Source of the DNA: Closterium sp. NIES-65
Lineage: Eukaryota > Streptophyta > Zygnematophyceae > Desmidiales > Closteriaceae
Reading direction: 5' to 3'
DNA length: 64,000 bases
NCBI GenBank assembly: GCA_948144175.1
Contig: CANXME010001994.1
Span: 434,001 to 498,000, forward strand
Below, one piece after another: positions 1-22,668 of the stretch; position 1 is the stretch's first letter, and each line of letters opens with the position of its first letter. The notes beneath the pieces were generated by a model that had not been told where the DNA came from, ran no database searches, and saw nothing but the letters and a program-made list of their open reading frames with translations. A program made the position numbers and the translations under genes.

Positions 1-3000
1 TCTCACTCTCACCACCACCAGAAACAGCAGCAAGCGCTTTACCCCCTGCTGCTTCCCCTCCCCCTCCTCCCCCACACAGCCCTTCTTGCAGGAATCTCTG
101 CCACGTGGCAGTCAGCCATTGTTCGCAGTGAAGAACGATCGGTGGCAGGAGCGTGCCGAGCCAGAGAGGATAGAGGCTCGGCGGACAGGATTTGACCAAT
201 GGGAGCAGGACGAGCTTCTGCAGCAGTCGCAGGTGCCGAGCCTCCATGCTAGCCACGGAATCGGCCAGTGCGGCCCGAACCTCCAGCACGAACTGCTGCT
301 GCTGGGGTGAGACCGAACCTAAGGATTGCAGGTTCGTGACGGGAGGCTCGGGAAGGGAGAAAAAGGCTGCTGGGGCGTTTGCTGCTGCCATACCAAGGAA
401 GCCATAACTGTTTGGGAGGAGGGCGGAGGAGGAGGAAGACCGGGAAAAACAGAACTAGAGTTGATTCTCTAATTAACTGAAAAGCAGAGAGCAGAGAGTC
501 CACATTCACCTACCAGCACCACAAAATGTAGCAGCCCTAAAGCTACAGATACTGTAACAGGTTCGGAATTGAAGGGGGAAAACAATCCGCCCACCCACCT
601 GTTGTCCTGCACACACTTGAGCCAATTCCGCCTCATTGCCAAAGCCATAGCCTCCCCTTGCACACCAGCACCACAACCAAGTCGCCCTGAAGCTACAGAT
701 ATGGTAACATGTTTGGCATTCAGGGGGGGAAACAATCCACCCACCTGTTGTCCCGCACACACTTGAGCCAATTTCGCCTCATCGCCAAAGCCATAGCCTC
801 CCGCTGCCTCTCCCCTGCTCCTCCCCCAACCCCTCCGCCTCCCCCTCCGCCTCCCCACGCCCCCCCTCCTCCCCCGGTCCCCCCCAGCAGCAGCGGCACG
901 CCCTCCTGCTTGCCTGACACGCCTGCCTGCCCCAGCACTGCTGCCTTCTCCTGCTGCCCCACCAGCAGCGCTGGGGCGAGGGTGGGGGGAAGGGAGGCGA
1001 GCACCTGAGGGGACCAGAGGGCGTGGAGGCAGTGCAGCAGCTGGGATGGAAAGGGGGGCGGAGGAAGCGGGGAAGGAGAGATATAACATTGAGAAACTTG
1101 GGTGGTAGGTGGTTTAACCCCCAAAGAATCAACAGCACGCCCTCCTGCTTGCCTGACACGCCTGCCTGCCCCAGCACGGACACCTTCTCCTGCTGCCCCA
1201 CCAGCAGTGCTGGCGCGAGGGTGGGGGGAAGGGAGGCGAGCACCTGAGGGGACCAGAGGGCGTGCAGGCAGTGCAGCAACTGGGGAGGGGGGAGGGGAGG
1301 GAAGGGAGATACGGCGGTGAGAAGCGGTGAGCAGTGGTGAGAAGCGGTGAGCAGTGGTGAGAAGTGGTAATATGAATGTAGGTGAGAAAACAGAGGTGAT
1401 GCTTGGGGAGGGAGGAGGGGGTTTAAGGTTTAGGGCGTGCAGGCAGTGCAGCAGCCGGGAGAGAAGGGGAGGGGAGACATAGTACCCTCCCCCGAATTAT
1501 CTTTTCCCATTCTCCTCCTGATCAGTCACTTAGTCATCTCGCTCTGAGCAGGGGAGGTACGAGCCAGTGTAGATGCAGACACACACAGTGCCTCACCCCC
1601 TTCCCTCCCTCCGTCTTCCTCCTGCCCCACCTCAGAAGCACCCCATTTTCATAAATCAGCTCAATTTGAACATCGTCTTACTCTGAGAAGAGGCGGCATG
1701 ATTCAATGCAGGTGCGGACTCACACAGTGCCTCACCCGCATCCCACACCCCTCACCTTCCACCCTTCCCACCTCAGAAGCACCCAATTCACATGAGTCTA
1801 TTCAACTTCATCTTACTCTGAGCAGGGGAGGCACAATCCAATGCAGGTGCGGACTCACACAGTGCACCGCCCCTCCCCCTCCCCCTCCACTCCCGCTTCT
1901 TTCCCCCACAACCCCATCCGCCACCCCCACAACCCCAGGGGAAGGCGGCGGCGTCGCCGCCACTCCTCCCCCTCCCCCTGCTCCCCCTCCCGCTCCTCCC
2001 CCTCCCACTCCGCTCCCCCCGCCAACAGCAGCGCGGCGCATGATTCTCTCAAGAAGCATCGTGGTGTGGTAGACGGCCCAGAAGTCTGCTTCCTCCTGGG
2101 AGCCCGAGCTGGGGGAGTGGAGGAGGAGTGCTGCTAGGGCTTCCGGGGAGGAGAGGTAGCGCGCCTGCCACGTGGCATCCGCCCATTGGGCGCGGATGGG
2201 TGCTAATAGCCACTCTACCACGGCTGCTTCTTCACTGGGGCTGCGCTGGTGGGGAGGGGATTGAAATGGGAGCAAATGGGGAGGGGAGAGTGGGCGGGTG
2301 CGGGGGAGGGAAAGGGGATAGGGGGGGGTGTTTTTGAGTCAACTCAGTACATTCCATTGGCGCTAGCACTCGACCATGCCTGCTTCTTCACTGGGGCTGC
2401 GCTGCTGGGGAGGGGTGGGGGGGGATTTAGAGTAAACGGAAGAGGAGGGACAGTGGGGAGCCAGGGGCGGAGAGAGGGGGAGGAAGGTGGGAGGGAGGGA
2501 AATATGATCACTCACCCTGCAGCAGCAGCAGCCACGAGCAGCAGCGCTTCAGCGAGCAGAATGAGTTTTCATGCCGCACCGCACCTGAAAGCGTCTGCTG
2601 CACTCGCTGCACTGCACTTGCATCTCGCTCCCACACTCACTCACCCACTCATTCCTGCTCACTCACACCCTCACTCCCTCCCTCACTCACCCTGCAGCAG
2701 CAGCCACCAGCAGCAGCGCCTCAGCGAGCAGAATGATCTCCCCATGCAGCACTGCGCCTGACTGCGTCTGCTGCACTCGCTGCACTGCTGCCTGTTGCTG
2801 TTGCCGAATGCCCATCACCTGATCCACCATTGCCTGGAGTTGGAGGAGGAGAAGAGGAGTGGGGGTGTGGAGAACGGAGAAAGGGAGATTAGAGGAGGTA
2901 TGAGACGTCTCAAAGATTGCCAGGCACTTCTGCAGTGCTGCCTGCTGCTGCCGGGTGTTCATCACCTAATCCACCATTGCCTGGAGAGGAGGGAAGGGGC

Positions 3001-6000
3001 AGAGGGGGAAAGGAAAGATCACAAGCTGTGAGACGTCTCCATGCTCTGCTGCATGCGCTGCAGTGCTGCCTGTTGCTGCTGCCCAATGTTCATCACCTGA
3101 TCCACCATCGCCGGGAAAGGAGAAGGGGGAGGAAAGGAGGGGAACCAGGAATCGGAATACACATGTTGTGAGTGAGACGTCTCAACACCAGACTGGCTCT
3201 GCTGCACGCGCTGCACTGCTGCCTGCTGCTGCTGCCGAATGCCCATCACCTGATCCACCATCGCCTGGAGAGAGAAGAGGGGGAGGGTGTGAGTGAGAGG
3301 GAACGAGTGGTGAGACGTCTCAGAGCTTGACTGCACGCGCTGCACCATAACCTGAAGAGAGGATGAGGGGGGATGAGATCAAACAAACGAAAGAGGGGGA
3401 AAGGAGGACGGAAAGGGAGCAAAAAACCTTAAACCTAATGCTGCCTTGAGGTAATATCCCAAAGGCAATAATGCTTTGTGGTGGGACCTTGAGCATGGGC
3501 GCGAGAGCCACGTCAGCAGAGCGTGCCACTCTCAGGATGGACGTGCACACTTGCAGGCGGGGCAGGCGATTGGTTCTCACCTCACCCCTCACTGCGTCGC
3601 CTGAGGCGATACCAGGGGCCGTGTAACGCACCTTGAGCATGGGTACAAGGGCCACGTCAGCAGAGCGCGCCACTCTGAGGATGGACGTGCACACTTGCAG
3701 GCGGGGCAGACGGTCCTCACTGCGCTCCGGCCGCAGCATGGGCTCCACTCCCTGGCAGGGTTGGGGAAGGGGGAGGACCACAAGGAGATAGAGGGGGAGG
3801 GGCACACGGAGAGAGATAGGGAGGGAGAGGTGACTCTTCTTGCAGGCGAGGTAGGCGGTCCTCACTGCGCTCCGGGCAGAGCATGGGCTCCACTCCCTGG
3901 AGGGGCAAGGGGCGAGGGAAGAAAGGGCGGAAGACAGGAGAGGGGAGGGAACAAGAGGAGGGAGAGGTGACTGTTGAGGCTTGAGTCGGGAATAACAAGG
4001 GCGGCAGCAGGAGGAGGGGAGTGCTTGAGGAAGGGGCTGAGCGTGGTGACTTAACAAGGGGAACGAGCAGCTCAGAATACATACCAGGGGGGTGGGTGGC
4101 AGAGAGCTGAGGAGCTCGAAGAGCTTGGGAATGACGAGGGCAGCTGCGGGCGGGGAGTGCTTGAGGAAGGGGCCCAACGCGTCCAGCAGGTGCGCATGCA
4201 GCTCTATCAGCACGGGGTCATTCCACTGCACACACAACAGGCGTTGTAGCACACCTGGAGGGGAGGAACAGCAAAGAGAGGGGAAGGGGTGGGGGCAGGA
4301 GAGTGCTTGAGAAAGGGGCTCAGCCTCTCAGCGCGTCCAGCAGGTGTGCGTGCAGCTCTATCAGCACAGGGTCGCTCCATTGCACACACAGCAGTCGCTG
4401 CAACACACCTGGAGGGGAGGAATAGCAAAGAGAGGGGAAGGGGGGTGGGGGGGGAGGGGAGTGCTTGAGGAAGGGGTCCAGCTGCCCAGCGCGTCCAGCA
4501 GGTGTGCGTGCAGCTCTATCAGCACAGGGTCGCTCCATTGCACACACAGCAGTCGCTGCAACACACCTGTGGGGAGGAATAGCAAAGAGAGGGGAAGGGG
4601 GGTGGGGGGGGGAGGGGAGTGCTTGAGGAAGGGGTCCAGCTGCCCAGCGCGTCCAGCAGGTGTGCGTGCAGCTCTATCAGCACAGGGTCGCTCCATTGCA
4701 CACACAGCAGTCGCTGCAACACACCTGGAGGGGAGGAATAGCAAAGAGAGGGGAAGGGGGGTGGGGGGGGGAGGGGAGTGCTTGAGGAAGGGGTCCAGCT
4801 GCCCAGCGCGTCCAGCAGGTGTGCGTGCAGCTCTATCAGCACAGGGTCGCTCCATTGCACACACAGCAGTCGCTGCAACACACCTAGAGGGGAGGAATAG
4901 CAAAGAGAGGGGAAGGGGGGTGGGGGGGGAGGGGAGTGCTTGAGGAAGGGGTCCAGCTGCCCAGCGCGTCCAGCAGGTGTGCGTGCAGCTCTATCAGCAC
5001 AGGGTCGCTCCATTGCACACACAGCAGTCGCTGCAACACACCTGTGGGGAGGAATAGCAAAGAGAGGGGAAGGGGGGTGGGGGGGGGAGGGGAGTGCTTG
5101 AGGAAGGGGTCCAGCTGCCCAGCGCGTCCAGCAGGTGTGCGTGCAGCTCTATCAGCACAGGGTCGCTCCATTGCACACACAGCAGTCGCTGCAACACACC
5201 TGTGGGGAGGATTAGCAAAGACAGGAGGAAGGGTGCTTGATAAAGGGGCCTAAGGCGTCCAGCAGGTGTGCATGCAGCTCTATCAGCACGGGGCCGCCCC
5301 ATTGCACACACAGCAGCTGCTGCGACACACCTGGTCACGGGAGAGGGGGGTGAGAAATCGGGTGGGGAAGAGCGAACAGGAGTGGGTGCGTGCAGCTCTA
5401 TCAGCACGGAGTCATGCCACTGCACACACAGCAGCAGCCACTGTAGTACTTTTGGTAGAGTGGGAAAGCAAGATGAATGGGGAGAAGCGAGGAGGTGGCA
5501 GGGAGTGCAGCTCCAGCAGGGAGTGCAGCTCCAGCAGCATGGGGTCATGCCACTGCACACACATCAGCAGCCGCTGCAAGATGTCACAACCCACATACTC
5601 GTTACAAGCTACCCCACTCACCCTCTACAATGAGCCCCAGGTCGTCAGCAAGAATGGCGGGATTGGTGGAGTGAGCAGCGGCTGCTGCCATGACTGCATC
5701 AGGCACAGCAGTCATCACCGCATCTTCCAGCATTCTCGCTCCCTCCAACACTGCCACCACCTGGACGGGGGAGGGCGGGGGAAGTTTAGCCCTATGTAGG
5801 TTGAAGCATGCATGCATCGTGCCCAGCTGCTGCCATGACAACATCAGGCACATCTGCCATCACCGCATCTTCCAACTTGCTTCACTAACACCCCATGCGC
5901 CATGCCCACATGCCCACATGCAACATGCCTGATGCAACATGCCCCATGCCCCAAGGCACCCGTGCCCCATGTCCCATGCCCATGCCCCATGCTCCATGCC

Positions 6001-9000
6001 CCATACTCTATGCCCCAGGGCTTGCCTTGGGGGGCGGGGGAGCGGAGGTGGCAGCAGCAACCGCGGCTTCGATGCGAGAGGCCACCTTGGATGCTGCTAT
6101 GAGCGGCTGCTGCTGTGTCACCAGCCGCACCACGTCCATCTGCAGGAGCGAGGGGTGGTTGGGGAGGGAGGGAGGAGAGGGATGGGGAGCGGCTGCTATG
6201 AGTGGCGCCATGCCCCACCTACCATCCCGAGAGGCCACCTTGGATGCTGCTATGCGCGGCTGCTGCTGTGTCACCAGCCGCACCACGTCCATCTGCAGGG
6301 GGATTGAGGGGGAGTGAAAGGAGAAAGGGAGGGAGGGAAAGGAACCTGAGTGGGGGAGGTGGGGAGAGAAGCCAGGGAGGAGACAGGGTTGCTATGAGTG
6401 CACAACTCACCACCCATCCATGTTATCACTCTATTTTCACTGCACTCACCAGTCGCCTCCTGCACTCACCAGTCGGCTCCTGTACTGCGCGTAATCTCCA
6501 CTGTTGGTAAACTCCTCGTGCCAACCCTCCCTGTCCTCCCCATCATCCCCCTCCCCATCTCCTGGGCGTCTAGGAAGGTGATCCGCCAGCAGCCTCAGGC
6601 AGAACCAGGCAGTGCAAGCCAATAGTCCCCCCCATGCACTCACCAGTCAGCTCCCACTCCCACTAGTTACCTCCCACACTCACCAGCCGGCTCCTGTACT
6701 GCGCATAGTCCCCGCTGTTGGCAAACTCCTCCTGCCAACCCCCATCCTCATCCTCCTCTTCCTCGCCCTCCCCTGGGCGTCTAGGAAGGTGATCCGCCAC
6801 TACGTCTAGCAGCCTCAGGCAGAAATCGGGCAGTGTGCAGTCCAAACCAGTGCAAGCCAGTGCAAACCAGTGCAAGCCACTAGCCCCTGTGCAGTGTGCA
6901 CTTACCAGTCGGCTCCTGTACTGAGCGTAGTCTCCACTGTTGGTGAACTCCTCCTGCCACCCTTCGTTGTCGTCCCCATCATCCCCCTCCCCCTCCCCTG
7001 GTCGTCTCGGCAGGTGATCTGCCACCACGTCCAGCAGCCTCAAGCAGAAATCAGGCGGCACGAGAATCACTGCAGCGCGCTTGTTGTCCTTTCCGCCACT
7101 CGTGCTCTGTGCTGATTCCCTCAGTAACACCTGAGGGAGCGGGGAGGGAGTTTTGGTGGGTCACCCTGACTCATGTTTTCGAAGGGCTGCAGTAGTAGAG
7201 AGGACGCTTAAGCAAAGGAACAACAGTAAAAACTTGTGAAAAACGCAGATCTGAGAAACCCTTGACTTCCGAAAAGCCTCCTTTCCGCCACTCGTGCTCT
7301 GTGCTGATTCCCTCAGTAACACCTGAGGGAGCAGGGAGGGAGTTTTGGTGGGGGGAGGGGAGGAGGGGAGATGCGGGGTGGAGGGGAAGTGGGATGAGTT
7401 ACCTAGATCCCAATGAATCCAGATATAACTAGGAGGCAGTGAGCCAGGACAAAGGTAGGTGCGTGCTAAGTGTTTGCTAAGTGCTTGGTAAGTGCTTGGT
7501 AAGTGCTTGCCAAGTGCTATGTAAGTACATTAAGTGGTGGGAGCTTACCAGCCAGAGTTGGAGCGCCAGGGCGTGCAAGGAGAAGCATTTGCACTCAAAG
7601 AAGCGAAGCATCTGCAGGCACGAGAGGGGAGCGGCAGCAGGAGGAAGGCGAGGGTGGGAGGAGAGGAGATAAGTAATTAGCAGAAAGAAGTGGATAGCAG
7701 GTGAGGACGAGGAGGACGGGGACCATCAGTGAATAAAACCGATTCCAGAAATGGGAAGCAAGAGATCGCACACCTCAAGTTGAGAGCAAGACAATATTCA
7801 GCAAGGATAATGGTTATTTATCTCCACAGACTGTTTCCGTGTCGTCTATATGCCAAACACTGTACTACTCATCGTGCGTAGCAAATTATCGTGTGAAAAG
7901 GAGACCAAAAACAAATTTAAAAAGCAAGGAGGCAATCAAACAAACATACAAACTCACTGTGTGGAAGAATTTGGCATATCTAGAATCATCCTGCTGTGCT
8001 GCTCTCTTTTGAGTAGACGCAAAAGTACTTTGCCATGCAGAAGAATCCTAGATGTGAAAGCGAATACTTACCGTGTGGAAGAACTTGGCATATCTAGAAT
8101 CATCTTGCTGCGCTGCTCTTTTGAGATTCGACGGCGCAAATGCCACCATCGCCTCACACAGCCTTTCAGCAAACGCCACCTCCCCCTCATCCACCTCCCC
8201 CGCCCCCCCTCCTCCCCTCGCGCCCCCCCCTGCTGCCATCCCCCCTCCCTGCCCCGCTGCTTCCCTTGGAGAGGAAGCAGGGGCGGAACCTGTAGAGGTG
8301 GTGACGCGATCAAGGGAATTGTCGGCTGCAGAGACGAGGGAGTCGGCCACTGATGTCATGGCGGCGTTGAATGCCTCCTGGTCGTCTGAAGGGGCTCGCC
8401 TGAAGGGGGTTGCAGCAGGGAAAGTGGGGGGACGTGGGGGGGAGGGGGGGCGGGGGGGGTTGTGGGTGATGGTGAGGCGATTTAGTAGTCGACTCAAAAA
8501 GCCCCCCCGTTTCTTTTGGAGAGGAAGCAGGGGCGGAGGCTGTAGAGGTGGTGATGCGATCGAGAGAGGCGTCAGCTGCCGAGACGAGGGAGTCGGCCAC
8601 TGATGTCATGGCGGCATTGAATGCCTCCTGGTCGTCCGAAGGGGCTCGCCTGAGGTGGGGGAGGGAGGGCAGGGGGGGAGGGAGGGTTACTACAAGGATT
8701 GCCATCCCCGTTGCCTGTCTGTTCCCCTGTTCTCCTTGGAGAGGAAGAGGGGGCGGAGCCTGTAGAGGCGGTGATGCGATCGAGGAGGCATCAGCTGCAG
8801 AGACGAGGGAGTCAGCCACTGATGTCATGGCGGCGTTGAATGCCTCCTGGTCGTCCGAAGGGGAGTGCCTGAAGGGAGTGAGCGGTTGAAGGGGAGAACA
8901 GCAGAGGGGAAAGAGGAAGAGAAAGGGGGCACACAGCAGCGGAGGTTAGATGGAGAAGGGGAAGCGAAAAAGAAAACTATTAACACAGAAATCACCTTCA

Positions 9001-12000
9001 GATAAAGCTCAAAAAACCCCGATCGATCAGCTTGAAGATAGAAAAATCACCTCAAAAACACCAGCCAGCCAACCAACCCTTGGCAAACACTCAAGCATCA
9101 TTCACGGGTCACCCCAGATAGAACCGCCCTCGCACCACCGACCAGACAGCCCTTGGCGAGGCCCAGCAACCCTATTCCAGCTTCCAGCTTCCCTCCACCA
9201 CCCACCTGGCCGCCAGATGCTTGAAGAAATCCGCAGCTCCCATCCGGAAACCCGGCGAGCTGAGGAGAAACAAGCACCATGAACCATCCAGCCCTGGGTG
9301 AGAACTATCCCTTACACCCCCAACTGTTCGAGTGCCAGTGACCCTCCTCACCACCACACCACCCACTCTTGCTCCAACTCGTATCCATCATCCACCCACC
9401 TGGCCGCCAGATGCTTGAAGAAATCCGCTGCTCCCATTCGAAAATCAGGCGAACCGAGGAGGAAACCACAGCTGGAGGGGAGGGGGGACGTGGGTGATGG
9501 GAGGGGAAAGAGGGGAAAACACTTCAAAATAACTCTTGAATTCCAAAACCCTGGAAACTCACACGTTCAGCAAGCCGGCAAAGCGGAGATCAGGCACAGG
9601 CGCACAATCCGCATACGCCCCCGGTGCTGCCAGGCCCGCTGTCACATGAGCAGCCACTCTAGATATAAACCTCAACATCCGCAGGTCATACGCATGCAGC
9701 AAGCCAGCAGCGGCAAGAGCAGGCTCAGGCGCCAGCTCAGCATACACCCCTAGCGCTGCCAGCCCCCCTGTCACTCCTCACACACAGTGAACTTGAAACC
9801 CTAAACCCGAAAACCTGGACGCTCTCGCATTGAGCAAGCCAGCGGATGCAATCGCAGGCACAGGCGCCCACGCTGCATACGCCCCCAGCGCTGCCAGGGC
9901 GGCGGTCACAAGAACACCCAACCTACATACCCCAAAACCTCAAACCCTGAAACTCGCGCATTGAGCAGGCGAGTGGATGCAATTGCAGGTACATGCGCCC
10001 ACTCTGCATACGCCCCCAGCGCTGCCAAGCCTGCTGTCACAAGAACACCCAACCTACACACCTGAAAACCTCAAACCCTAAAACTCACGCATTGAGCAAG
10101 CCAGCGGATGCAATTGCAGGCACAGGCGCCCATTCTGCATACGCCCCCAGTGCTGCCAAGCCTGCTGTCACGGCTGCTGCATGCTGCCTTGCTGCGTCCA
10201 CGTTGCTCTGCTGCATGTCTGCCAGTGCTGCTGCGAAGTTAGAGTCCAGAAGCTGCAGAGGAATGCGACGAGGGGTGGGGAAAAAGCCAGGATTGCAGGG
10301 AAGCACTGGGTATCAAGAGGTGCTTGAGCGGACAAGACCCACTGTCTCGTCACTGCCTTGCAGCTTCACGTTGCTCTGCTGCATGTCCGCCAGTGCTGCT
10401 GCGAAGTTAGAGTCCAGAAGCTGCAGAGGAACGCGACGAGGGGTGTGGAAAAAGCCAGGGTTGCAGGGAAGCACTGGGTATGAAGAGGTGCTTGAACTTC
10501 CAAGCCTGCAGTCACGGCTGCTGCTGTGCAGCTTCACCTGGATCTGCTGCATGTCTGCAAGCGCTGCTGTGAAGCTGGAGCCCAGAAGCTGCAGTGAATG
10601 GCAATTTTTGGGACGTCTGAAAAATAACCTATCTACACGTGGCTTCACCTGGATCTGCTGCATGTCTGCAAGCGCTGCTGCGAAGTTGGAGCCCAGAAGC
10701 TGCAGTGAATGGCAAGGGTTGCTAGATCAGAACAACTAGCCTCAGGATGAGTGGAAACGCAATTTACTGGGAAAGGTGGGCAAAGCAAAGCACGGACCGA
10801 GTAGAGGAAGGGGAGGATTTGCGGCAGAGTCGCTGTAAGGCCGAGAAGCAGCTGACGCCTCCTGTTGCCTGGTGGAAGGGGGCGGGTGTGGTGATGGTGG
10901 GAGAACAGAACAGAGGAAGTGGATGAAATTTGACGACAGAGGATGGGGGTGATCAGAGGGTCACAGTTTCGACCTATCCTACTTCTCATGTTTTCCAAGG
11001 CAGAAAGGTTAGAAAAGAGTTGATAACAGGGGGGAACATGCGCTTCCTTGCACTGAACGAAGAAGGGAAGGAGGGTACGGCTGCACACTTGTCTTCTATA
11101 TCCCTCCTATTGACAATGTTACTATAGTCGTTGTAGACGAGTTTTGAGACGTCTCAAAACTTGCACACTTGTTTCCTTTTATATCCTTGCTATTGATAAT
11201 GTCACTATCCTCGTTGTAGACAGTCACTTGCTCGTATGCTCTATCACCTTCTATATCCTCGTTATGGACTGTCACATCTTCTGGTACAAACTGCAGCACA
11301 AGAGCCACCGTCTCTGCCTGCCCAGCCAGCCAAGGGGGGGAAGTCAAGAGAACAGTGGTAGGGGTAGGGGTTATTAGTGAAAATCAATGTGAGGGCACAC
11401 GAAGTGTGCATGTGGTGGGGGGGGGGACTTTGAGACGTCTCAAAAGTAGACGACTTTTGAGACGTCTAAAACGAAAATCAATGTGAGGGCATGCGAAGTG
11501 TGCATGTGACGGGGGAAGGGAGGGTTGTGGGGCGTAGAATGGGGGGTGTGGGGTGTGGGAAGGGAAGAAGAGTGAGGTAGTATCACTGAACAGGTGTCAG
11601 AAAAAGAAGTGGCAGCAGCAAAAGAGCAGAGTAAGAAAAAAAATCAACTCACTTATGTAACCCAGCCCCACCTTCCCCCACCCTCTCCCTCCCATTCCTT
11701 CCCTCCCCCCTCTCGCCTGACTGACATGGACGGGACTGGCAGCAGAGAGAGCGAGCAGAGACGGCAGCATCTCCTTCCACAGGTCCGACCCCTCGTGCTT
11801 CACAATCTGAGACAGTGGGGGAGAAAAGACGGAGGAAACGGGGAGGTAATGGGGTGGAGAAGGGGATGAATCGTCTTTACACAGGAAAGAAACTCTTTGC
11901 ATGAGTCCAAATCTTCATGATTCACCACCAGCAGGAGTGGGGTAGGAGAGAGAAGGCTAAGCAAGTCCTCGAAAGGTTAAGCAGCAGCAGCAGCAGCAGC

Positions 12001-13894
12001 AGCAGCACAAACACCAGCACCAGGAATAGCACAAGCACCGCCAGAACGACTCACATCAGCCAGGAGGGCAGCCGCCTTGCTGCGGATGGACCAGGGCTCC
12101 CCAGCAGTGTCGGCACAGCGCCTGGGCAGATCAAAGTTCAAACGCGTACACTGCCAGCCCAGCCTCGCCAGAAGCATAAGGTCACAGCAACACGCGACTC
12201 ACATCGGCCAGAAGTGCAGCCGCCTTGCTGCGGATGGACCAGGGCTCCCCAGCAGTGTCGGCGCAGCACCTGAGCAGATCAAACGCGTAAACTGGCAGCC
12301 CAGCCTCACCAGAAGCATAAACTCACAGCGACAAGCGACTCACTCACATCAGCCAGCAGTGCGGCCGCTTTGCTGCGGATGGACCAGGGCTCGCCAGCAG
12401 TGTCGGCGCAGCACCTGAGCAGATCAAACGCGTAAACTGGCAGCCCAGCCTCACCAGAAGCATAAACTCACAGCGACAAGCGACTCACTCACATCAGCCA
12501 GCAGTGCGGCCGCTTTGCTGCGGATGGACCAGGGCTCGCCAGCAGTGTCGGCACAGCGCCTGAGCAGGTCAAACGCGTACACTGCCAGCTTGCGCCGCTC
12601 GTCCGCGGGGAACTGCTGCCACTTGTTGCGCGCCACGTTCTTATAAGGGGGGGGGAAAGGAGGGGAGAGGGGGGGAGAGACGGGGTTCAGGTGGGAGGAA
12701 GGAAAAGAGAGTAGATACTTGAGGGTATTGGGTAATGGGTGATGGGACATGGGTAATTGGTCATGGGTCATGCGGGGTCATGGGGCCATGATTCACGAAT
12801 CATGGTTCATGTCATAGGCCATGGGGCATGAGCATGGTTCATGGCTCATGGGTCATGGGCATGGTTCATGGGTCATGGGCATGGTTCATGGGTCATGGGC
12901 ATGGTTCATGGGTCATGGGCATGGTTCATGGGTCATTGGCCATGGGCCATGGTTCATGGGCCGGGTCATGGTTGATAGCTCAAGTGTGATGGGAAATGGG
13001 TCATGGGTCATGGGTCATGGGTCATGGGTCATGGTTCATGGGTCATGGGTCATGGGTCAAGGGTCATGGTTCATGGGCCATGAGTACCGGGTAATGGGTA
13101 ATGGGAAATGGGGCGGCGGCATACCTGCAGCAGCTGGAAGGCGAAGAGGCGGGCATGCTCAGGCTGATCGCCGTTCACCAGGTGGGCTGCTAGCGACGCC
13201 TGACGGTGCGGCTCCTCCTCTGTCTTGAGCTGTGCGCGTGGAAAGGAGGGTTCAGGGATTGAAGAGGTGGCAGGCAATGTGATTAGGCTGCGTGTGTTGC
13301 TCAACCAAGTGACCTGGCATGCTCGGGCTGATCGCCGTTCACCAGGTGGGCTGCTAGCGACGCCTGACGGTGCGGCTCCTCCTCTGCCTTGAGCTGTGTG
13401 CGTGGAAAGGGAGTTCAGAGAAAGAAGGGGTGGCAGAGAACGTGAGCTGGATTCGTGAGTTTCTGGCCCAAGTGATTCGGCCTAACCAAACCCTGTGCTC
13501 TGGCCTGACTGACCAAGCGATGGAAAGTCCGTGGGCTATTGAGGCAGGAAGGAACGCATTGGCTGCGAAACAGCCTGCAGGACCAGGAGTGCCGTTTCTG
13601 GTCAGAATCTTCGGGCATAAGTATCAAGAGGAGCAGCACCGTCGGATGAGAAGGCTACAGTCAGGATCTGGTTGCTCAGCAGGTAACGTGACCGTGTCTA
13701 TTTCTGAGCACATAAGGCCACAGTTTCCAGGAATTCCAGGAGAACTTTGAGTCAACTCAAATCGTCCACTGAACAGCAATGATCACCTTTTCGAGGAATT
13801 CCGTGGCCGCAGCACGAGACGCCTGATCCGTCCGCCAATCAACGGCGACAGCGAGGGCCTGCAGCACCGCCTGGAGCTCTGTCGCCTCGTCCAT
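1..13894 (-). CDS. HST: HASTY / Exportin-5 orthologue, spliced, 3' end outside window
   Basis: Importin-beta-family karyopherin that exports pre-miRNA and other small-RNA cargo from the nucleus with RanGTP (family knowledge). Exons I could join with GT-AG sites and matching phases: 13787-13894, 13125-13229, 12493-12639, 11726-11806, 11248-11317, 10798-10868, 10089-10252, 9400-9471, 8072-8399, 7549-7611, 6906-7130, 6026-6139 (GC donor), 5622-5760, 4085-4254, 3632-3751, 2691-2833, 1817-2234, 745-1040, 78-407. They give about 1054 codons. Landmarks matching Arabidopsis HASTY in order: EPWSIRSKAAALLAD, VPEDVTVHNEDIEG, QHAAAVTAGLAALGAYAEWA, SPDFRMGAADFFK, SGDYAQYRSRL, LLDALGPFLKHSP, RLQVCTSILRVARSADVA, HALWSP and LVKSCPPSLYPLW. 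Start ATG at 13894 matches the family N-terminus. Roughly 250-300 C-terminal residues are missing. Gly-rich insertions occur in exons 9, 17 and 18. The frame is open throughout, so the gene looks functional despite many pseudo-exon copies in its introns. Confidence 0.9.
515..802 (-). repeat. Two-copy repeat covering 3' end of HASTY exon 18
   Basis: Two units of about 144 bp (about 515-660 and 661-802). The right unit carries the real end of exon 18 (RRNWLKCVRDNR plus donor GTGGGT). The left unit is a diverged copy with the same donor and the same intron start, lying in the intron before exon 19. Confidence 0.75.
886..1460 (-). repeat. Copies of 5' part of HASTY exon 18
   Basis: The first part of exon 18 (coding LHCLHALWSPQVLASLPP and what follows) is at 886-1040 and is repeated at about 1131-1277, preceded by its own acceptor. 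A short third fragment lies at about 1434-1460. Phase and family alignment select the 1040 acceptor; the other copies are intronic. Confidence 0.75.
1540..1862 (-). repeat. Three copies of 3' end of HASTY exon 17
   Basis: The exon end coding HLHWIVPPLLR with its GTAAGA donor is at 1817-1862. Diverged copies lie at about 1677-1740 and 1540-1600, spaced about 140 bp, on the intron side of the real donor. Confidence 0.7.
2512..3355 (-). repeat. Pseudo-exon array around HASTY exon 16
   Basis: Real exon 16 is 2691-2833. Its 5' part (coding AMVDQVMGIRQQQQAA, with acceptor) is repeated upstream at about 2930-2985, 3045-3116 and 3195-3270, with a fragment at 3330-3355. Its 3' part (coding LLAEALLL, with donor) is repeated downstream at about 2512-2588. 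Several copies are separated by the palindrome GAGACGTCTC. Confidence 0.8.
3480..3905 (-). repeat. Pseudo-exon copies of HASTY exon 15
   Basis: Exon 15 (3632-3751) codes GVEPMLRPERSEDRLPR followed by the helix RLQVCTSILRVARSADVA. A 3' copy with a donor-like end is at about 3483-3573. A 5' copy with an acceptor is at about 3847-3903. Confidence 0.8.
4255..5590 (-). repeat. Ten-copy pseudo-exon array of HASTY exon 14
   Basis: Intron 13 is filled with a tandem repeat, unit about 154-160 bp. Each unit has an acceptor, the start of exon 14 (coding VLQRLLCVQW and LIELHAHLLDAL), a 7-base insertion that shifts the frame, and a pyrimidine-rich tail that serves as polypyrimidine tract for the next unit. 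Copies of the core lie near 4332, 4488, 4648, 4808, 4966, 5126, 5248, 5388 and 5500. Only the last copy (4085-4254) continues to KLFELLSSLP and a GTATGT donor. Confidence 0.85.
5830..5880 (-). repeat. Partial copy of HASTY exon 13
   Basis: A diverged copy of the part of exon 13 coding MLEDAVM and following residues lies in the upstream intron. The real exon is 5622-5760. Confidence 0.55.
5884..6014. repeat. CATGCCC-type microsatellite/minisatellite
   Basis: A run of short imperfect units built on atgcccc and ccatgccc inside HASTY intron 12. No coding content is seen. Confidence 0.8.
6229..6298 (-). repeat. Copy of 5' part of HASTY exon 12
   Basis: This copy codes MDVVRLVTQQQPRIAASKVA after a CTGCAG acceptor, as does real exon 12 (6026-6139). 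Only the latter continues to APPPPK and the donor. Confidence 0.75.
6470..7335 (-). repeat. Pseudo-exon copies of HASTY exon 11
   Basis: Real exon 11 is 6906-7130 (75 codons). Two long 3' copies (coding CLRLLADHLPRRPG-type sequence and GDYAQYRSRLV) lie downstream at about 6680-6840 and 6470-6607. A short copy of its 5' end (coding VLLRESAQSTSGG) lies upstream at about 7270-7332. Confidence 0.8.
7960..8012 (-). repeat. Copy of 3' end of HASTY exon 9
   Basis: This segment codes KRAAQQDDSRYAKFFHT followed by GTGAGT, a copy of the end of exon 9 (donor at 8071). It lies in intron 9. Confidence 0.75.
8506..8873 (-). repeat. Two copies of 5' part of HASTY exon 9
   Basis: Segments at about 8506-8653 and 8734-8873 each have an acceptor and code PSDDQEAFNAAMTSVADSL. 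Real exon 9 (8072-8399) starts with the same block. The unit spacing is about 230 bp. Confidence 0.8.
9180..9266 (-). repeat. Partial copy of HASTY exon 8
   Basis: This copy codes GFRMGAADFFKHLAAR and ends in the same GTGGGTGG donor. It lacks the exon's first residues (CGFLLG), which only the 9400-9471 copy has, so 9400-9471 was taken as the real exon. Confidence 0.75.
9565..10040 (-). repeat. Four 3' copies of HASTY exon 7
   Basis: Blocks at about 9565-9650, 9695-9770, 9832-9912 and 9960-10036 repeat the 3' half of exon 7 (coding AALGAYAEWAPVPAIASAGL). They lie on the donor side of the real exon (10089-10252) and several keep GTGAGTTT-like donors. Confidence 0.8.
10354..10730 (-). repeat. 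Three 5' copies of HASTY exon 7
   Basis: Blocks at about 10354-10440, 10524-10600 and 10650-10720 repeat the 5' half of exon 7 (coding LLDSNFAAALADMQQS) with a CTGCAG-type acceptor, on the acceptor side of the real exon. Confidence 0.8.
11090..11247 (-). repeat. Degenerate copies of 3' part of HASTY exon 5
   Basis: Downstream of the exon 5 donor are two to three AT-richer copies of the stretch coding VTVHNEDIEG, separated by the 20-bp palindrome at 11141-11160. Confidence 0.6.
11983..12008. repeat. CAG/CTG trinucleotide run in HASTY intron 3
   Basis: About eight consecutive agc units. It is intronic, so it is not part of the protein model. Confidence 0.8.
12050..12486 (-). repeat. Three 3' copies of HASTY exon 3
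   Basis: Copies at about 12058-12125, 12204-12290 and 12346-12432 repeat the coding of RCADTAGEPWSIRSKAAALL with its GTGAG donor and a CTCAG created inside the exon. The real full exon (12493-12639) lies on the acceptor side. Confidence 0.8.
12725..13110. repeat. ATGGGTC minisatellite in HASTY intron 2
   Basis: Dozens of short units such as atgggtc and atgggcatggttc, with a local higher-order repeat of about 20 bp between 12830 and 12935. No coding content is seen. Confidence 0.85.
13315..13396 (-). repeat. 5' copy of HASTY exon 2
   Basis: This copy codes EEEPHRQASLAAHLVNGDQ with the same CACAG acceptor, then diverges. Real exon 2 (13125-13229) continues to LFAFQLLQ and a GTATGC donor. Confidence 0.8.
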
Positions 13895-15784
13895 TGCCGT
13901 ATCCCCGCTAAAAGCCGATCCTTGTATAAACGTAAGACAAATCGGCTGTATGCAAGTGCGCGCAGCACTGTCTAACACGCTGCCGCTTCGCCCATTTCGG
14001 ATGTTACTAAATGATTTCACCGTTCGCTATCACCACCCCGAATTCGGCGTTATTTCTGCATTTCCTTATCACCGGACCGAAAGCGGCCTTATTGCGACTC
14101 TGGGACAACGAGCCGGATTCAGAATCTAATGCCGATTCCTCTGAGATTCAAACTGCCCCTGTGAAGTAAAGCACTTGCCGACTTCGGCTAGCAAGAGCTG
14201 AGAGAATCACTACCAGCTTTCATCGAATCCTGCACCACTTACATGGCCCTGGGAATCTCTAGAACGCAGAGAATCCTCGACCATCTGGCAGCACAGCAGG
14301 CAGGAACCCTGAACCTGAATGCCTCGGTTCTGCCGAATTTGTTCCTAGTGTACCATTCGGGTTATTATTTGTTTTACCAAAGATACGCCCTTACAAATGT
14401 GAAGGCCGTCTGCGATAATAGACCCAGTGCATACAATATGTGATAATAACCAGTGGCATTTTAGACCAACAAGGTGACACGAGGAATTTCATCATTTTTG
14501 ATGTGACGGGGAAGGACGAATTCAACTACATAAGAAATGTGGCAATTTGCCAGGCCTGTACTGGAAATCCTAGTTTGAGGCACCTTGATGTGACAGCGAA
14601 AAATGCCACCTATCCACAAATTTTAACCTATAATTTGATTTTAGATTCTCTAAACTATCTAGAGAAATCTGTAATTTATCAGTCACTTATCTAAGCTATT
14701 TTATCCTTGATACTTATACTCGTGTCCTGTTGGCATGTACCTGGAACCCCCTAAATTGATATCGGGCATCGTTTAGAGCAGATCACATGGCGTGAATGGG
14801 AAGCAACACAGGCTCCGTCTGCCATAAGATGTCGCCGTCAAGTTCGCCAACGTCGAAAGAACCGCCTGGGCTGGGCGTTCTCCTCTCACTTCACCCTATC
14901 CGTCTCTCTGTGATTGGTGGTTTTGCTCATGGCATGTCAAAACCCGTGTCGCCACGTCGTTATCTCACGCCTTCCATACCTAGCTCGAGGCTGTATACTA
15001 GCCAAACCTGCGCTTTGGTTGCGGGATTTCTTGTTCGGGCTGTGGTGTCTCTCTCGGTCGGTTCGGACAGCCTAGAATTTGTCTGTGTGTGGTGACATCA
15101 GTGTTCCCCACACCGCATCGAACCCTCCCTAATTCCGTGGGAAAATGTCAATAACGAACGGGATTTTCGCCCTCTTCTAGCTGGCTGCCTCCAAGCCTGG
15201 AACTGCCAGCAAAAGCCAAGCCATCGTACATATCAAACCGAACATAATTGTCCACCCGAACCGTGCTTCCTGGTTTGCCGCAGCCACCCGAGCCGAGAGT
15301 GAGGGCAAACCAAAATGGAAGACAGGAAGGGATGAATGAGCATTGAGCAGACAGACAGAGAACCCTAGGAGGAAGAGATAAGGGCGACGTCAGGTTATAC
15401 ATTTCACATGGGTTTACAGTTCTTGTATCGTGGCTCAAGACGGTCCAAAACGGTGGAAAGAGGTTCTTGACGTTTATCGCTCTGCACCGTGTTGAAACGA
15501 AGTTAACCGCAGTGTGAGTACAAAAAGTTGTACAACCTGACGTCGCCCTAGAAGCCATTCGCCAGTGCTGCTACTCCCCTTCCAGTTTGCCCTTTCAAGT
15601 TCAAGTTCAGGTTCAAGCTTGATATATCTGAGGCACTGGAGTGAGCTTCAAGTGCTTTTGAGTATTTCTGTCTTCTTGCTTCCCCTTGTGAATCCGCAGT
15701 GTTCGTTTATCTTTCTGAGCTATTTGCGACCGTAAATGAAGTAGAAAGTTTTGACACTTCCAACGAAATCAGCGACGTCCCTGA
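13895..15784. other. Divergent intergenic region between HASTY and the CUE gene
   Basis: Lower GC than the flanking genes, with no ORF I recognise. A 136-codon minus-strand ORF at 15148-15558 shows no family motif and is left uncalled. It must hold the promoters of both flanking genes. Short direct repeats (ttcaag, gttcaa) occur at 15594-15620, just upstream of the CUE gene. Confidence 0.5.
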
Positions 15785-18700
15785 ATGGAGGCTGCACTAA
15801 CTCACTTACGGGAGCTGTTTCCCAAGGTGGACGTCAGGCTTCTGAAGGCGGCGATTCGCGAGCATGGCACGTCGCCGGAAGCCATGGACGAGGTGGTTCA
15901 GTACCTCATGGACGAAGCGCTTTCGGATTCCTCGTCTTCCGACGGAGAAATTTCGGACAAGGAGGACGATGTCGAGAATATTAATACGGTAAGTGATTTC
16001 GTTCCGGTCTGCTAGGCCGGCTTCATTTGTTCCGTTCTCCTCGTTCTCCCTATTATTCTGTTTCCTAGTGTATGTTAGCCGAAAGTTAATTTGGTTATTC
16101 CCCTTGCAGGATTCTGCCGGGTTTGCACCATTAGGGGTTACTGATAGACACGAATCTTCGTCCCCCATTGACGCAAAGTCTTTTGACGAGACCGCCGATA
16201 ACGAGGATCCATCTGGCGAAGCCGTTAACGAGGAGTCTTTTTTTGAAGCCGAGGAGAATCTCCCCGCGTCAAGAGCTTCTCTGCAAGACTCAGCGGCTTC
16301 CAGCGACGATAAGATCATCCTCGGCTTGTCGGAAATACCGGTGATGACAGTTCTGCCAGCGTCCTCAAACTTGTACAGTGAAAATAGTGTCGGTGAGGAG
16401 GGAGAGAAACACGATGAGCAGGACCTTTCCGCCCTCGTCGCTACTGGCCAAGGTCCAGACAACATCAGCACCATCGGCACCATCGATACCACCAGCACCA
16501 TCGATACTACCGGCACCATCGGCGCCACTGGCGAAAGATCAGCAGACTCGTTAGAAGCACCTCTGACGGCTTCTTCCGATAGCGAAGATTTTGGAGAACT
16601 CATGGCGGGAAGTGCACCGCCGTTGGATGCGACACTGGAAGAATCTGTGGACGGCGCAGATCTGGTTTATGAGAATCTGAAAGAAGACGCTATTAACGGT
16701 GATAAGGCTGATGGTGGCCAAGTCGAGGGTGACTCTATCGAGGGTGCTGATGCTGACGTACGCGAGGCTGGAGTTGTGATTAAAGCGGGGGCGAAATTGT
16801 TTGCGGATGCTGCTGATGCGGCCGGCGCTTCTGGTTCTACTGATGGGACCGAAGAGGAAGAGGAGAAAGCGGAGGTGGAGAAAGCGGTCGTTGTGAATGA
16901 ACCCGAGGGTGAACCGGAGAGTGAACCGGAGAGTGAACCCCAACAGGCGGACGGAGAGAACATGGGCGGTGCTGGGGTGGGTCGAGAAGAGATTCAGGGC
17001 GAGCCCGAGCAGGCCACGCACAAAGCAGAACCTGTAGTGGAGAAAGGGGAGGAGAGGGACGAGGCTGTAGCTGTGCAAGAGGAGAGCAAGGGAGAGGAGG
17101 TCAGGATGGAGGAAGTTTTGAAGGAAGGAGAGGAAGCAACGGAGGGAAAGCAAGAGAAACGAGCGGATGAGCGCGAGAAGGAAGAGAAAGATGAGGGGCA
17201 AAAGGAGCGGGAAGAGGAGGAGGAAGAGTGCGAGCATGTGGAGGTACCAGAGAGCCTAGTGAACAGCTGGAGCCGGTCCTTCGTGGAGGTCGAAGTCAGC
17301 ACCATTGCCCACCACGTGGCCTCCACCAGAGACGCCAAATCCCGCCTCGACGCCCAGCTAGCGTCCATTCAGACGCTCCTGTCGGAGGTGGAGCGCGCCG
17401 AGCAGCAGGCAGCCGCAGCTGAAACCGCTCTGTCCCATGCTGGCGAGGCTGACGTTGCCGAAGCTGAGAATGTGCTTCGGCACGTGGTTCGGTCACAGCA
17501 GGCGCTGGAGATCCGCGCGGCGCAGGTGTTTGGGCACCGGGCGCAGCTGCAGGAGGATTCGCAGGGGCTTAAATCCCGGGTCGAGGCGATTCAGGGTCAA
17601 TTCGCGGAGGTGGAGAGGCAGGTGGAGGAGTTGAGAGCGGTGCTGGAGAAGAGGTTGGAGCGAGCTAGGGAGAGGATTGGTGAGTTGGAGAAGAGGAGGA
17701 GGGAGAGGGAGGAGGGAGGGAGGAAGAAACTGAAAGGGGCAGAAAGGGAGATGGGGCGGGTGCTGGGGGAGGTGCCGGGGCTGGAGAGGCAGGAGCGGGC
17801 GTGTGATGAGCTGGCAGATGCACTGGTGGCACGTCACCACGAGGCTGATGTGTTGGAGGGACAGCTGGCGGTTCTGCGGGAGGACCTGGCGGCGCTGGTG
17901 AGGGGCGTGGGACGGCTGCCCGGGCTGCCTGGGGAGGCAGTGGAAGACCTGGGATACTCGTTTTTGAGTGAAGAAGGAAAGGAAACTCGTGAAGGTGAGT
18001 GGTGTGCATGGGGACTGTGATGTTTGTAGCGAGGTAGTGAAGGGCGTGGGGCAGCTGTCTGGGCTGCCTGGAGAGGCAGCGGAGGATCTGGGGTACTCGT
18101 TTCTTACTGAGGGAGGAGAGGAAGACGGTGCAGGTGAGTGGAGTTGAGGGGCCTGTGATGTTTGTGGTTAGTAGTGCGGGGCGTGAGGCAGCTGCCAGGG
18201 CTGCCAGGGCTGCCTGGGCTGCGTTGGCTGCTTGGGTACTCAAAGGATGACTGGGCTTAATCATTACTGTGTGTTGTTTGGTGGCGGTTTTGGAAACATG
18301 TGCGTTCTGTGTGGCCTGCACATGCCCCAATCCATCCGCGTGTTTATGTCTCCTCATGCTGCTCTCTCTATGTGTCCTCTTCTCTTTCCTTTCCATCCCG
18401 ATCTCTTTTTCTGTTCAATCAGGCCAGAGGCAGGAATCTTATCATTCTCTGCACGAGGATCTCTCACAAGCATCAGGATCATCAGCAACAGCAGCGTCTG
18501 CACCGGACGCCATTATGCCTGCCGTACAGGCCGCTCCCATCACAGGTCGCACAGGTGAAGGCCAGAGTAACCTTGTTGCTGGAGTATTGGGGTTGAAGCA
18601 GCAGCAGCAGCTGCAGGTCCCATTACAGGTTGCTGGAGTATTGGGGTTGCCCAACGCCTCTAGCCCTGCTTCGGTGGGTGACTTGAATGCAACTGCTGTT

Positions 18701-19003
18701 CCTGCAACATCTAATGCTGGTGCCCCTGACGCTGGCACTGCTGGTGCTGCCGCTGGTGGTGCTGCCGCTCTGTACTCAGAGCTGTGCAGTGCCCAAAACC
18801 TCGGCACATCCCCTGCTGCCGCCGCTGGGGTCAACGCCCTTTCTGGTGACTCTTCGTTCAGCAACACCACTCCTGCTGCTGTCGAGACCGCATTCAACAT
18901 CCCCACGGCTTCTCCCTTCGAAGATGAGGACCAATTCGAGGCGAAGATGCGTGAAATGTCCAGCATGCTCAAGGAAACGCTCCCTGTTTCCCGCTCCCGG
19001 TTC

Positions 19004-19053
<50 letters not shown>

Positions 19054-19384
19054 CCAGCTGCAGTCACAACAGCAGCAGGCAGGTGTGGTAAGCGGGTTGA
19101 CTGATAACAACACTGGAGTGGAAGGCGTGACGATGATTGAAGACGGTGACTGGAGCGTGCTGGAAGCTTCTGATCTGCTCACAGCGTCAGTGCTAGGTAA
19201 TGGGGTTGGTGATGGTGCTGGTGGGGCATTGGGAGGTGCTGATGATGAGGCGCGGTGGTCGGGGCACAGCTCGTTCAGTGTGCATGCTGGCAGCACTCCT
19301 CGGGCGAGGGAGGGCGGGGTTGTGAGGGGTGAGAGTGGCAAGATCAGTGAGGTGATGGAGCGGTATTTTGGCAGCAGTGAGTAA
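15785..19384 (+). CDS. CUE-domain, acidic, coiled-coil, polyQ protein (3 exons)
   Basis: Exons 15785-15988, 16110-17994 and 18423-19384 join in phase (0, then 1) to 1016 residues. Residues about 5-47 look like a CUE domain: LRELFPKVDVRLLKAAI with the LFP motif, then AMDEVVQYLMDEAL. CUE domains bind ubiquitin (family knowledge). After an acidic, Glu-rich region (roughly 230-455), residues about 458-675 form a long heptad-rich coiled coil. A run of about 16 Gln follows near residues 890-906. The C-terminus ends in SEVMERYFGSSE, which is repeated after the stop. The start is the first ATG in frame with CUE. No transmembrane segment or signal peptide is seen. I do not recognise a named orthologue. 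A ubiquitin-binding adaptor role is inference. Confidence 0.8.
17907..18242 (+). repeat. Three-copy repeat of the 3' end of CUE-gene exon 2
   Basis: The block coding LPGLPGEAVEDLGYSFL with donor GTGAGT (17907-17994) is repeated at 18043-18133, which keeps a GTGAGT donor and a possible AG acceptor at 18041-18042. A decayed copy is at 18179-18242. The second copy is 91 nt, so its inclusion would shift the frame. Confidence 0.8.
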
Positions 19385-19716
19385 AGAGACGGCAGAGCGG
19401 CAGCGGCATGATGAGGCGCGGTGGTCGGGGCACAGCTCGTTTAGTGTGCATGCTGGCAGCACTCCCCGGGGCAGGGATGGAGGGGAGATCAGTGAAGTGA
19501 TGGAACGATACTTTGGTGGCAGCGAGTAAGGGGGGGAGGAGCAGCAGTGGCAGTTGCAGCAGCAGTGTGGGTGAGGATGAGGCACGGTGGTCGGGGCACA
19601 GTTCGTTCAGAGTGCATGCTGGCAGCACTCCCCGGGGCAGGGATGGAGGTGCTTGGAGGGGCGAGAGCGGAGAGATGTGTGAGGTTATGGAGCGATACTT
19701 TGGCAGTAGTGAGTAG
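19240..19716 (+). repeat. Three tandem copies of the CUE-gene C-terminal coding end
   Basis: 19240-19384 codes DDEARWSGHSSFSVHAGS through VMERYFGSSE and the stop. Copies at about 19409-19528 and 19572-19716 code the same peptide with small changes, and each keeps an open frame and its own stop codon. They lie in the presumed 3' UTR. Confidence 0.85.
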
Positions 19717-20088
19717 AGAGGGAGACTGGCCACAGGTGTGTGTGTGTAGATGCAGCTTCTTTAAGGGTTCTCGAAGAAAGTTCAGCAGTGCAGACAGGAG
19801 GAAGCTGAGAGGAGGATGGTGACTATGCCCTTGCTAGGGACATGGGTCTGTGTACATAGTTTCTGTGCGGCAAGGTGTAGACAACTGAGACTCTGTCTAT
19901 TGCATTGCATTTTAGTTCTTGTAAAAACCACTGGTGCCTCATTTCAATTGATGTAATACGTACACATAGCATAGAGAAACACAGCACATGTCCAAGAGCT
20001 AGTAAATGGTTCAGCGTGTTGGAACTGTGACAAACTCACATCCGCAACTCACAAGGAAGCACCTCTCCCCTCTCTTGCCGATGTGGAA
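19717..20088. other. 3' flank of the CUE gene
   Basis: AT-richer flank up to the TIR element. I see no ORF or RNA gene; it probably holds the poly(A) site. Confidence 0.4.

Positions 20089-22469: not shown

Positions 22470-22668
<199 letters not shown>

What the first reader, a model, noticed from the sequence alone, without database searches (positions are those of the whole stretch)
1..13894. Almost every HASTY exon has intronic partial copies that straddle a splice junction
With phases and family alignment I fixed 19 real exons. At least thirteen have extra copies nearby: 5'-half copies with acceptor lie upstream of the real exon, and 3'-half copies with donor lie downstream. So each copy is a tandem duplication across an intron-exon border. 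Such duplications keep one working junction and turn the rest into intron, a plausible route for intron growth. The scale (over 30 copies in one gene) is unusual.
Basis: partly seen in the sequence, partly recalled or inferred. Interest (0 to 1): 0.88.

Follow-up and report, generated by a model that had tools for sequence, protein, structure and literature searches.

The report
Introns filled by exon-edge duplications
In a desmid alga, the introns of one gene are largely made of old and new local copies of the ends of that gene's own exons, showing how introns can grow by repeated small duplications and hinting that such copies may exchange places with the working exon.

Summary
Window 13894-1 (minus strand) is a HASTY/exportin-5 gene of a Closterium alga; its 19 in-window exons join to 1082 codons without a stop and align to a NIES-68 protein with no gap at a border. 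Of 44 exon-versus-intron hits, 41 lie in an intron next to their own exon and belong to 13 of 19 exons; the 24 upstream copies lack the exon's 3' end, the 17 downstream copies lack its 5' end, none is a whole exon. Shuffled introns gave 3 hits in 30 replicates. Stretches from exon to farthest copy cover 6375 of 10647 intron bases. The one neighbouring gene examined shows the same. Best reading: frequent small tandem duplications, filtered so that one complete exon survives; one border-crossing case is known in potato. New: copies differ from exons mainly at third codon positions (321 of 603 mismatches; dead-copy simulation 276, sd 11), so some were probably not dead since they separated; exchange with functional alleles or exons is the likeliest cause. 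No RNA or genome-wide data could be obtained.

The parts
1..13894 (-). HASTY/exportin-5 gene, 19 exons in the window, continues beyond the window start
13787..13894 (-). exon 1 (no copies found)
13125..13229 (-). exon 2
13314..13393 (-). upstream copy of exon 2, bases 1-80 of 105, 96%
12493..12639 (-). exon 3
12055..12444 (-). three downstream copies of exon 3 bases 51-147 with donor (95, 90, 87%); mosaic with the exon
11726..11806 (-). exon 4 (no copies found)
11248..11317 (-). exon 5 (no copy at threshold)
10798..10868 (-). exon 6 (no copies found)
10089..10252 (-). exon 7
10353..10699 (-). three upstream 5' copies of exon 7
9564..10040 (-). four downstream 3' copies of exon 7
9400..9471 (-). 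exon 8
9206..9270 (-). downstream copy of exon 8, bases 8-72 of 72
8072..8399 (-). exon 9
8501..8863 (-). two upstream copies of exon 9
7959..8019 (-). downstream 3' copy of exon 9
7549..7611 (-). exon 10 (no copies found)
6906..7130 (-). exon 11
7279..7322 (-). upstream copy of exon 11, bases 1-44, 100%
6470..6833 (-). two downstream copies of exon 11 3' part; mismatches 3,3,21 and 3,3,17 at codon positions 1,2,3
6026..6139 (-). exon 12 (GC donor)
6183..6292 (-). upstream copy of exon 12
5622..5760 (-). exon 13
5824..5881 (-). upstream copy of exon 13, bases 25-82
4085..4254 (-). exon 14
4288..5578 (-). nine upstream copies of exon 14, six of them an array of 158-159 base units
3986..4045 (-). 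downstream copy of exon 14 interior, bases 74-130
3632..3751 (-). exon 15
3839..3896 (-). upstream copy of exon 15
3488..3570 (-). downstream copy of exon 15 (mismatches 0,1,7 by codon position)
2691..2833 (-). exon 16
2924..3264 (-). three upstream copies of exon 16
2520..2615 (-). downstream copy of exon 16
1817..2240 (-). exon 17
2367..2396 (-). upstream copy of exon 17
1543..1775 (-). two downstream copies of exon 17
745..1040 (-). exon 18
1118..1278 (-). upstream copy of exon 18
599..680 (-). downstream copy of exon 18
1..407 (-). exon 19, cut by the window start
15785..19384 (+). second gene, exons 15785-15988, 16110-17994, 18423-19384 (1016 aa), used as internal comparison
18031..18136 (+). 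intronic copy of the end of exon 2 of the second gene with its donor
19408..19720 (+). two copies of the coding end of the second gene behind its stop codon, third-position divergence

Best explanation
These are local DNA duplications, with units of about 110-250 bases, that fell across an exon border. A duplication across an acceptor leaves a useless 5' piece upstream of the intact exon; one across a donor leaves a useless 3' piece downstream. Either way one complete exon with both splice sites remains and the extra piece is inferred to be spliced out as intron. Duplications inside exons or of whole exons would change the protein and are inferred to be removed by selection. Repetition, including duplication of earlier copies, has built up to 60% of the intron length. 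The mutational route is probably fill-in repair of staggered nicks, as described for rice and for nickase-induced breaks (inferred from papers, not shown here). A subset of copies has probably recombined with the functional exon or with diverged alleles: exon 3 and its copies are mosaics, and many copies differ from the exon mainly at silent sites.
For: Position rule 24 of 24 and 17 of 17; 41 of 44 hits adjacent to their own exon; 3 hits in 30 shuffled replicates. AG at 21 of 24 projected acceptors, GT at 12 of 17 projected donors. Copies accumulate amino-acid changes: polarised by the NIES-68 protein, 169 changes on the copy, 22 on the exon, 38 on neither; 4 stops in 1259 codon pairs; 17 of 41 copies hold a gap whose length is not a multiple of three. 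Identity from 68 to 100% suggests a continuing process. The neighbouring gene shows the same. Silent-site excess: mismatches 158/1312, 124/1314, 321/1304 at codon positions 1, 2, 3; the dead-copy simulation never reached 321 (max 300 in 4 x 60 runs; max 306 in 150 runs), also without E14 (214 of 371 against 166, sd 8.5) and with one copy per exon side (154 of 277 against 127, sd 7.2). Exon 3 and its three copies show all four combinations of two left and two right sequence types (read by eye from the alignment).
Against: No RNA reads: that the copies are spliced out rests on the NIES-68 gene model and on phase. Automatic models of the locus (P0001-P0003) use several copies as coding sequence. 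Some near-identical pairs have spacers without a recognised parent, so simple head-to-tail duplication does not cover all. The exchange step is indirect: no diverged allele or paralogue of HASTY was found, 27 of 41 copies (third-position share under 0.62, the E14 upstream copies among them) need no exchange, and intron flanks were too noisy to date (no background computed). Absence of whole-exon copies was not tested against a formal model.
Confidence: 0.75

Rival explanations
1. Some copies are real alternative exon ends that are translated in part of the transcripts, which would explain their silent-site divergence.
For: Third-position bias of the E11 downstream copies (3,3,21 and 3,3,17; 0 of 2000 simulations each), weaker for E16 up (p 0.0055), E15 down and up (0.0115, 0.015). 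The frame stays open from exon 11 through its first downstream copy, whose end lies 222 bases, a multiple of three, from the exon end. Models P0001-P0003 use copies.
Against: Copies behind the stop codon of the second gene show the same bias (3/46, 2/45, 12/46 and 3/57, 7/56, 20/56), where ordinary translation does not reach. Read by eye, the cut edges of the 41 copies show no consistent splice site. The NIES-68 model uses none. Most amino-acid changes fall on copies.
Confidence: 0.1
2. The duplications are targeted to exon borders (by transcription, splicing or exon structure) rather than random and filtered.
For: 7 of 7 pairs with at least 90% identity (bases 1-15800) carry exon-border sequence; local repeats cover 34% of the HASTY span, 12% of the second gene, none of the 1.9 kb between the genes and 0.3% of the other 44 kb.
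Against: Less similar pairs without exon sequence at this threshold exist in introns 4, 5 and 2 (11379/11473, 11082/11162, satellite near 12729). The last 44 kb is largely retroelement sequence, the intergenic piece is short, one search misses some short pairs, and exon-bearing copies stay recognisable longer because one partner is conserved. By my rough estimate, not computed in a call, about 70% of surviving random 150-base units would cross one border here, so 7 of 7 would not be significant.
Confidence: 0.12
3. A mobile or palindromic insert creates the repeats as long target duplications of 49-74 bases around a small insert.
For: The palindrome TTTGAGNNNNCTCAAA (up to 2 mismatches) occurs 8 times in the HASTY span against a mean of 0.55 in 200 shuffles (maximum 3) and once in the other 50 kb; 7 of 8 lie between the two copies of a pair, where 36% of intron bases lie; it lies inside the short gaps 11139-11161, 11428-11472 (twice) and 10605-10641.
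Against: The other duplicated pairs show no such palindrome in their gap; over the whole window with up to 3 mismatches the pattern is not enriched (23 against 21.5); the two in one gap are hardly independent, and the related TGAGACGTCTCA sites at 2901-3322 repeat within exon 16 units; no element was linked to it.
Confidence: 0.08
4. Assembly artefact.
For: Six array units of 158-159 bases are nearly identical.
Against: Most copies differ by 5-30% from the exon; models on other contigs (P0002, P0003) carry several of the same copies.
Confidence: 0.02

Closest known systems
Tandem duplication across an intron-exon border in a potato RdRp gene (PMC4974935; abstract and Results section read)
   Same: A duplicated segment holds the 3' end of an intron and the 5' part of the next exon; most splicing signals come from the parental border.
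   Different: One event that created a new intron supported by RNA reads; here 41 copies in one gene, no new intron seen, existing introns lengthen.
[quoted passage not shown]
   Same: Local duplication changes gene structure and exon sequence becomes intron.
   Different: That model duplicates an exonic AGGT segment; here the units include an existing splice junction.
Small tandem duplications from repair of adjacent nicks (PMC7971508 passages; PMC8355091 passages; Vaughn and Bennetzen 2014 and Schiml 2016 seen only in a reference list)
   Same: Local, direct duplications of tens to hundreds of bases; structural mutations reported as rarer in exons than introns.
   Different: Described as mutations or polymorphisms; accumulation at the exon borders of one gene is not in the passages I read.
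Introners (PMC9860276, listing and start of abstract only)
   Same: A repeated DNA process shapes introns.
   Different: Introners copy themselves into many genes; here each copy comes from its own neighbouring exon.

Membership tests
HASTY/exportin-5 gene | full-length colinear similarity to a HASTY-type protein | tested here: met
   NIES-68 protein 88% identity over 98% of the query; Escallonia 34% over 97%; human exportin-5 chain 3a6p_A, E 6.8e-17, residues 8-296. The name HASTY is recalled; the sources shown do not use it.
Tandem duplication across an exon border | direct orientation, next to the parent exon | tested here: met
   41 of 44 sense hits adjacent to the parent exon; 17 antisense hits, all in E9, E17, E18
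Tandem duplication across an exon border | copy includes intron sequence beyond the splice site | tested here: met
   clear for many (e.g. E2, E3, E7, E14), indistinct for others (e.g. E9 down, E15 down) (no background computed)
Tandem duplication across an exon border | head-to-tail without spacer | tested here: inconclusive
   met or nearly met for E2, E3, E7, E14, E15 up; not for E11 up, E12 up and the first two E7 upstream copies
Intron gain by tandem duplication | a new, spliced intron | tested here: not met
   19 of 19 exons align to NIES-68 without gap at any border; intron positions of NIES-68 itself were not available
Functional alternative exons | complete exon with both splice sites | tested here: not met
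   none of 41 copies holds a complete exon; no consistent splice site at the cut edge, read by eye
Functional alternative exons | inclusion in RNA | not testable with these tools
   no RNA reads available
Introners | the same element in introns of many genes | not tested
   own-genome search did not complete (25 attempts, last)

The most novel reading that the evidence does not exclude
Exon ends in this alga are not fixed: intronic copies act as a reserve that recombines with the working exon, so that a sequence which is intron or 3' UTR in one strain is exon in another. Hints: copy 2 behind the stop codon of the second gene matches the working exon end of strain Yama58-4 (43/47) better than its own exon (38/47) or those of NIES-65, NIES-53 and Naga37s-1 (39/47 each); the intronic copy of exon 2 matches Naga37s-1 (28/34) better than its own exon (22/34); exon 3 of HASTY is a mosaic with its copies. 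At 51 copy-covered sites where the window exon differs from NIES-68, a copy keeps the NIES-68 residue at 12, all copies agree with the window at 26, and 13 are neither. An old duplication with later change of the exon could explain part of this, and the strain tree is unresolved (support 0.10).
Probability: 0.35. Interest if true: 0.8.

Novelty: new variant of a known kind. Interest (0 to 1): 0.6.

Why it matters
How introns grow is usually told through transposons. Here one housekeeping-type gene records dozens of small duplications of different ages, each with a known parent sequence and a clear selective filter, so rate, age and fate of such mutations can be read directly. If copies swap with the working exon, introns would serve as a store of spare exon ends. 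It also warns annotators: three automatic gene models of this locus include such copies as coding sequence.

Tried and rejected
Chance similarity: rejected by shuffles. Biased composition: a likely cause of the 3 non-adjacent, 17 antisense and 5 reversed hits, not of the 41. Splice sites at the cut edges, which would make the copies small complete exons: looked at for all 41 by eye, no consistent signal (the E2 upstream copy does end at CAG|GT). Ongoing gene conversion as the cause of the silent-site bias: rejected by argument only. Higher mutability of G, C and CpG: included in the simulation, does not explain the bias. Copy-versus-copy comparison is mixed: E14 pairs show no third-position bias, E3 and E11 pairs do, others vary. 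Per-copy tests with 2000 runs were done for 14 of 41 copies (those with third-position share of at least 0.62); only the two E11 copies survive correction for 41 tests. Eight spacers searched against the window: no parent found, only short or low-complexity matches and, for the 37-base spacer, the palindrome. The palindrome in prokaryote genomes: 11 scattered matches, read as chance. Papers: no description of exon-edge copies in Closterium introns showed in the listings; these are listings of an open-access library and no proof of absence. One search used a faulty filter and was replaced, whose settings still miss some short pairs; searches failed on wrong options and gave no usable data; the strain identities printed were off by one residue and are replaced. 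No protein-family library was searched (one search failed and was not repeated); the Pfam accessions are precomputed.

Full report
What it is. The first 13.9 kb of the window, minus strand, is a gene for a HASTY/exportin-5 type protein. Nineteen exons join in phase to 1082 codons without a stop; the introns are GT-AG except for a GC donor at exon 12. I chose the borders for phase and homology; the independent check is that the joined protein is 88% identical over 98% of its length to CLOM_g22773 of Closterium sp. NIES-68, with every exon colinear and no gap at a border. Human exportin-5 is the best solved relative. The host is therefore read as a Closterium; NIES-65, Yama58-4, NIES-53 and Naga37s-1 hold homologues of the second gene. 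The gene continues beyond the window start.

The copies. Each exon was compared with all introns in sense orientation. Of 44 hits, 41 lie in an intron directly next to the parent exon: 24 upstream, none reaching the exon's last base, and 17 downstream, none including its first base. No hit holds a whole exon. Thirteen of 19 exons are concerned; E1, E4, E5, E6, E10 and the partial E19 are not. Identity runs from 68 to 100%. Shuffled introns gave 3 hits in 30 replicates; antisense and reversed introns gave 17 and 5 hits, all in E9, E17 and E18. AG stands at 21 of 24 projected acceptors and GT at 12 of 17 projected donors, and for many copies similarity runs on into the intron. By alignment 3974 of 10647 intron bases are exon-derived (my sum of the per-intron figures), and the stretches from each exon to its farthest copy cover 6375. 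Several of the copies are also present in gene models on other contigs, which makes assembly error unlikely.

Not this gene only. The second gene (15785-19384, plus strand) has a copy of the end of its long exon plus donor in the following intron (18031-18136) and two copies of its coding end behind the stop codon. No other gene was examined. Local repeats, short-period ones masked, cover 34% of the HASTY span, 12% of the second gene, none of the 1.9 kb between them, and 0.3% of the remaining 44 kb. The last figure is a poor control because that stretch is largely retroelement sequence (frames; family recalled). The mean intron length here, 591 bases (10647/18), is close to the 485-554 bases reported for four strains of the Closterium peracerosum-strigosum-littorale complex (PMC10407611, passages read).

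How it arises. A duplication across a border leaves one complete exon; this alone gives the position rule. Selection against duplications inside exons or of whole exons would explain why no whole-exon copy is seen; I did not test this with a formal model. In rice, tandem duplications are the commonest source of insertions, enriched at 50-200 bases, and are linked to repair of adjacent nicks (PMC7971508, passages); such duplications can be made experimentally at breaks with protruding ends (PMC8355091, passages). That this happens in Closterium is inference. A single border-crossing duplication is known from potato, where it made a new intron (PMC4974935, abstract and Results read). Three near-identical pairs here are separated by spacers of 37, 81 and 118 bases without a recognised parent, so part of the events carried filler DNA or were later interrupted.

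What does not fit dead copies. If a copy is dead from birth, it changes equally at all codon positions while the exon changes mainly at silent sites, so third positions should carry about half of the differences or less. Observed: 158/1312, 124/1314 and 321/1304 mismatches at positions 1, 2 and 3. A simulation that lets the exon accept every silent change, and in three of four settings gives G, C or CpG higher mutability, yields 267-279 third-position mismatches of 603, at most 300 in 240 runs and at most 306 in 150 runs. The excess stays without E14 (214 of 371 against 166) and with one copy per exon side (154 of 277 against 127). It is concentrated: the E11 downstream copies have 3,3,21 and 3,3,17, and E15 and one E16 copy are similar, while the E14 upstream copies, E17 and others look dead. 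Singly, after correction for 41 tests, only the two E11 copies stand. Copies behind the stop codon of the second gene show the same bias, the one across its donor does not (6/36, 8/35, 10/35). Against functional copies: polarised with the NIES-68 protein, 169 amino-acid changes fell on copies, 22 on exons, 38 on neither. The picture is of a mixture: copies that died early, and copies that were coding for a long time and died recently.

A possible reason. In exon 3 the exon and its three copies show all four combinations of two left-hand and two right-hand types, which suggests exchange within the unit (read by eye). In the second gene, copy 2 behind the stop codon is closer to the working exon of Yama58-4 (43/47) than to its own exon (38/47), and the intronic copy of exon 2 is closer to Naga37s-1 (28/34) than to its own (22/34). 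Exchange between copies, exons and diverged alleles would explain this. An old duplication followed by change of the exon explains part of it too, and the tree of the strains does not resolve which is outermost (support 0.10). For HASTY, at 51 sites where the window exon differs from NIES-68 a copy keeps the NIES-68 residue at 12, all copies agree with the window at 26, and 13 are neither.

Limits. No RNA data, no DNA of other strains, and no answer from the own-genome search in 25 attempts. Statements on frequency genome-wide are therefore open. Copies within one array are not independent; the counts are copies, not events.

Noticed in passing
2333, 2899, 8008, 10607, 11143, 11429, 11456, 13746 (starts): A palindrome TTTGAGNNNNCTCAAA (0-2 mismatches) is enriched in the HASTY span (8 against 0.55 in shuffles), and 7 of 8 sit between the two copies of a duplicated pair, where 36% of intron bases lie.
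   Followed up: partly
6440-6486 and 6637-6694: 20-base tandem repeats with a donor-like CTGGTGAGTG on the minus strand next to the exon 11 copies, so duplication also occurs at a much smaller scale.
   Followed up: no
12729-13112: Satellite-like TGGGTCA repeat (period 7, 14 or 21) fills most of intron 2, which has no exon copies.
   Followed up: no
intron 5, about 11114-11247: The P0003 gene model reads an exon-5-like stretch (VTVYNED) here, perhaps a copy too diverged for the threshold.
   Followed up: no
19741-64000: Several long frames with retroelement gag, integrase and reverse transcriptase look, on both strands, with glycine-rich parts (names recalled).
   Followed up: no
P0001, P0002, P0003: Automatic gene models of this locus include intronic copies as coding sequence, 1705-1731 aa against 1358 aa in NIES-68.
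   Followed up: partly
22472-22682: A 211-base AG dinucleotide run.
   Followed up: no
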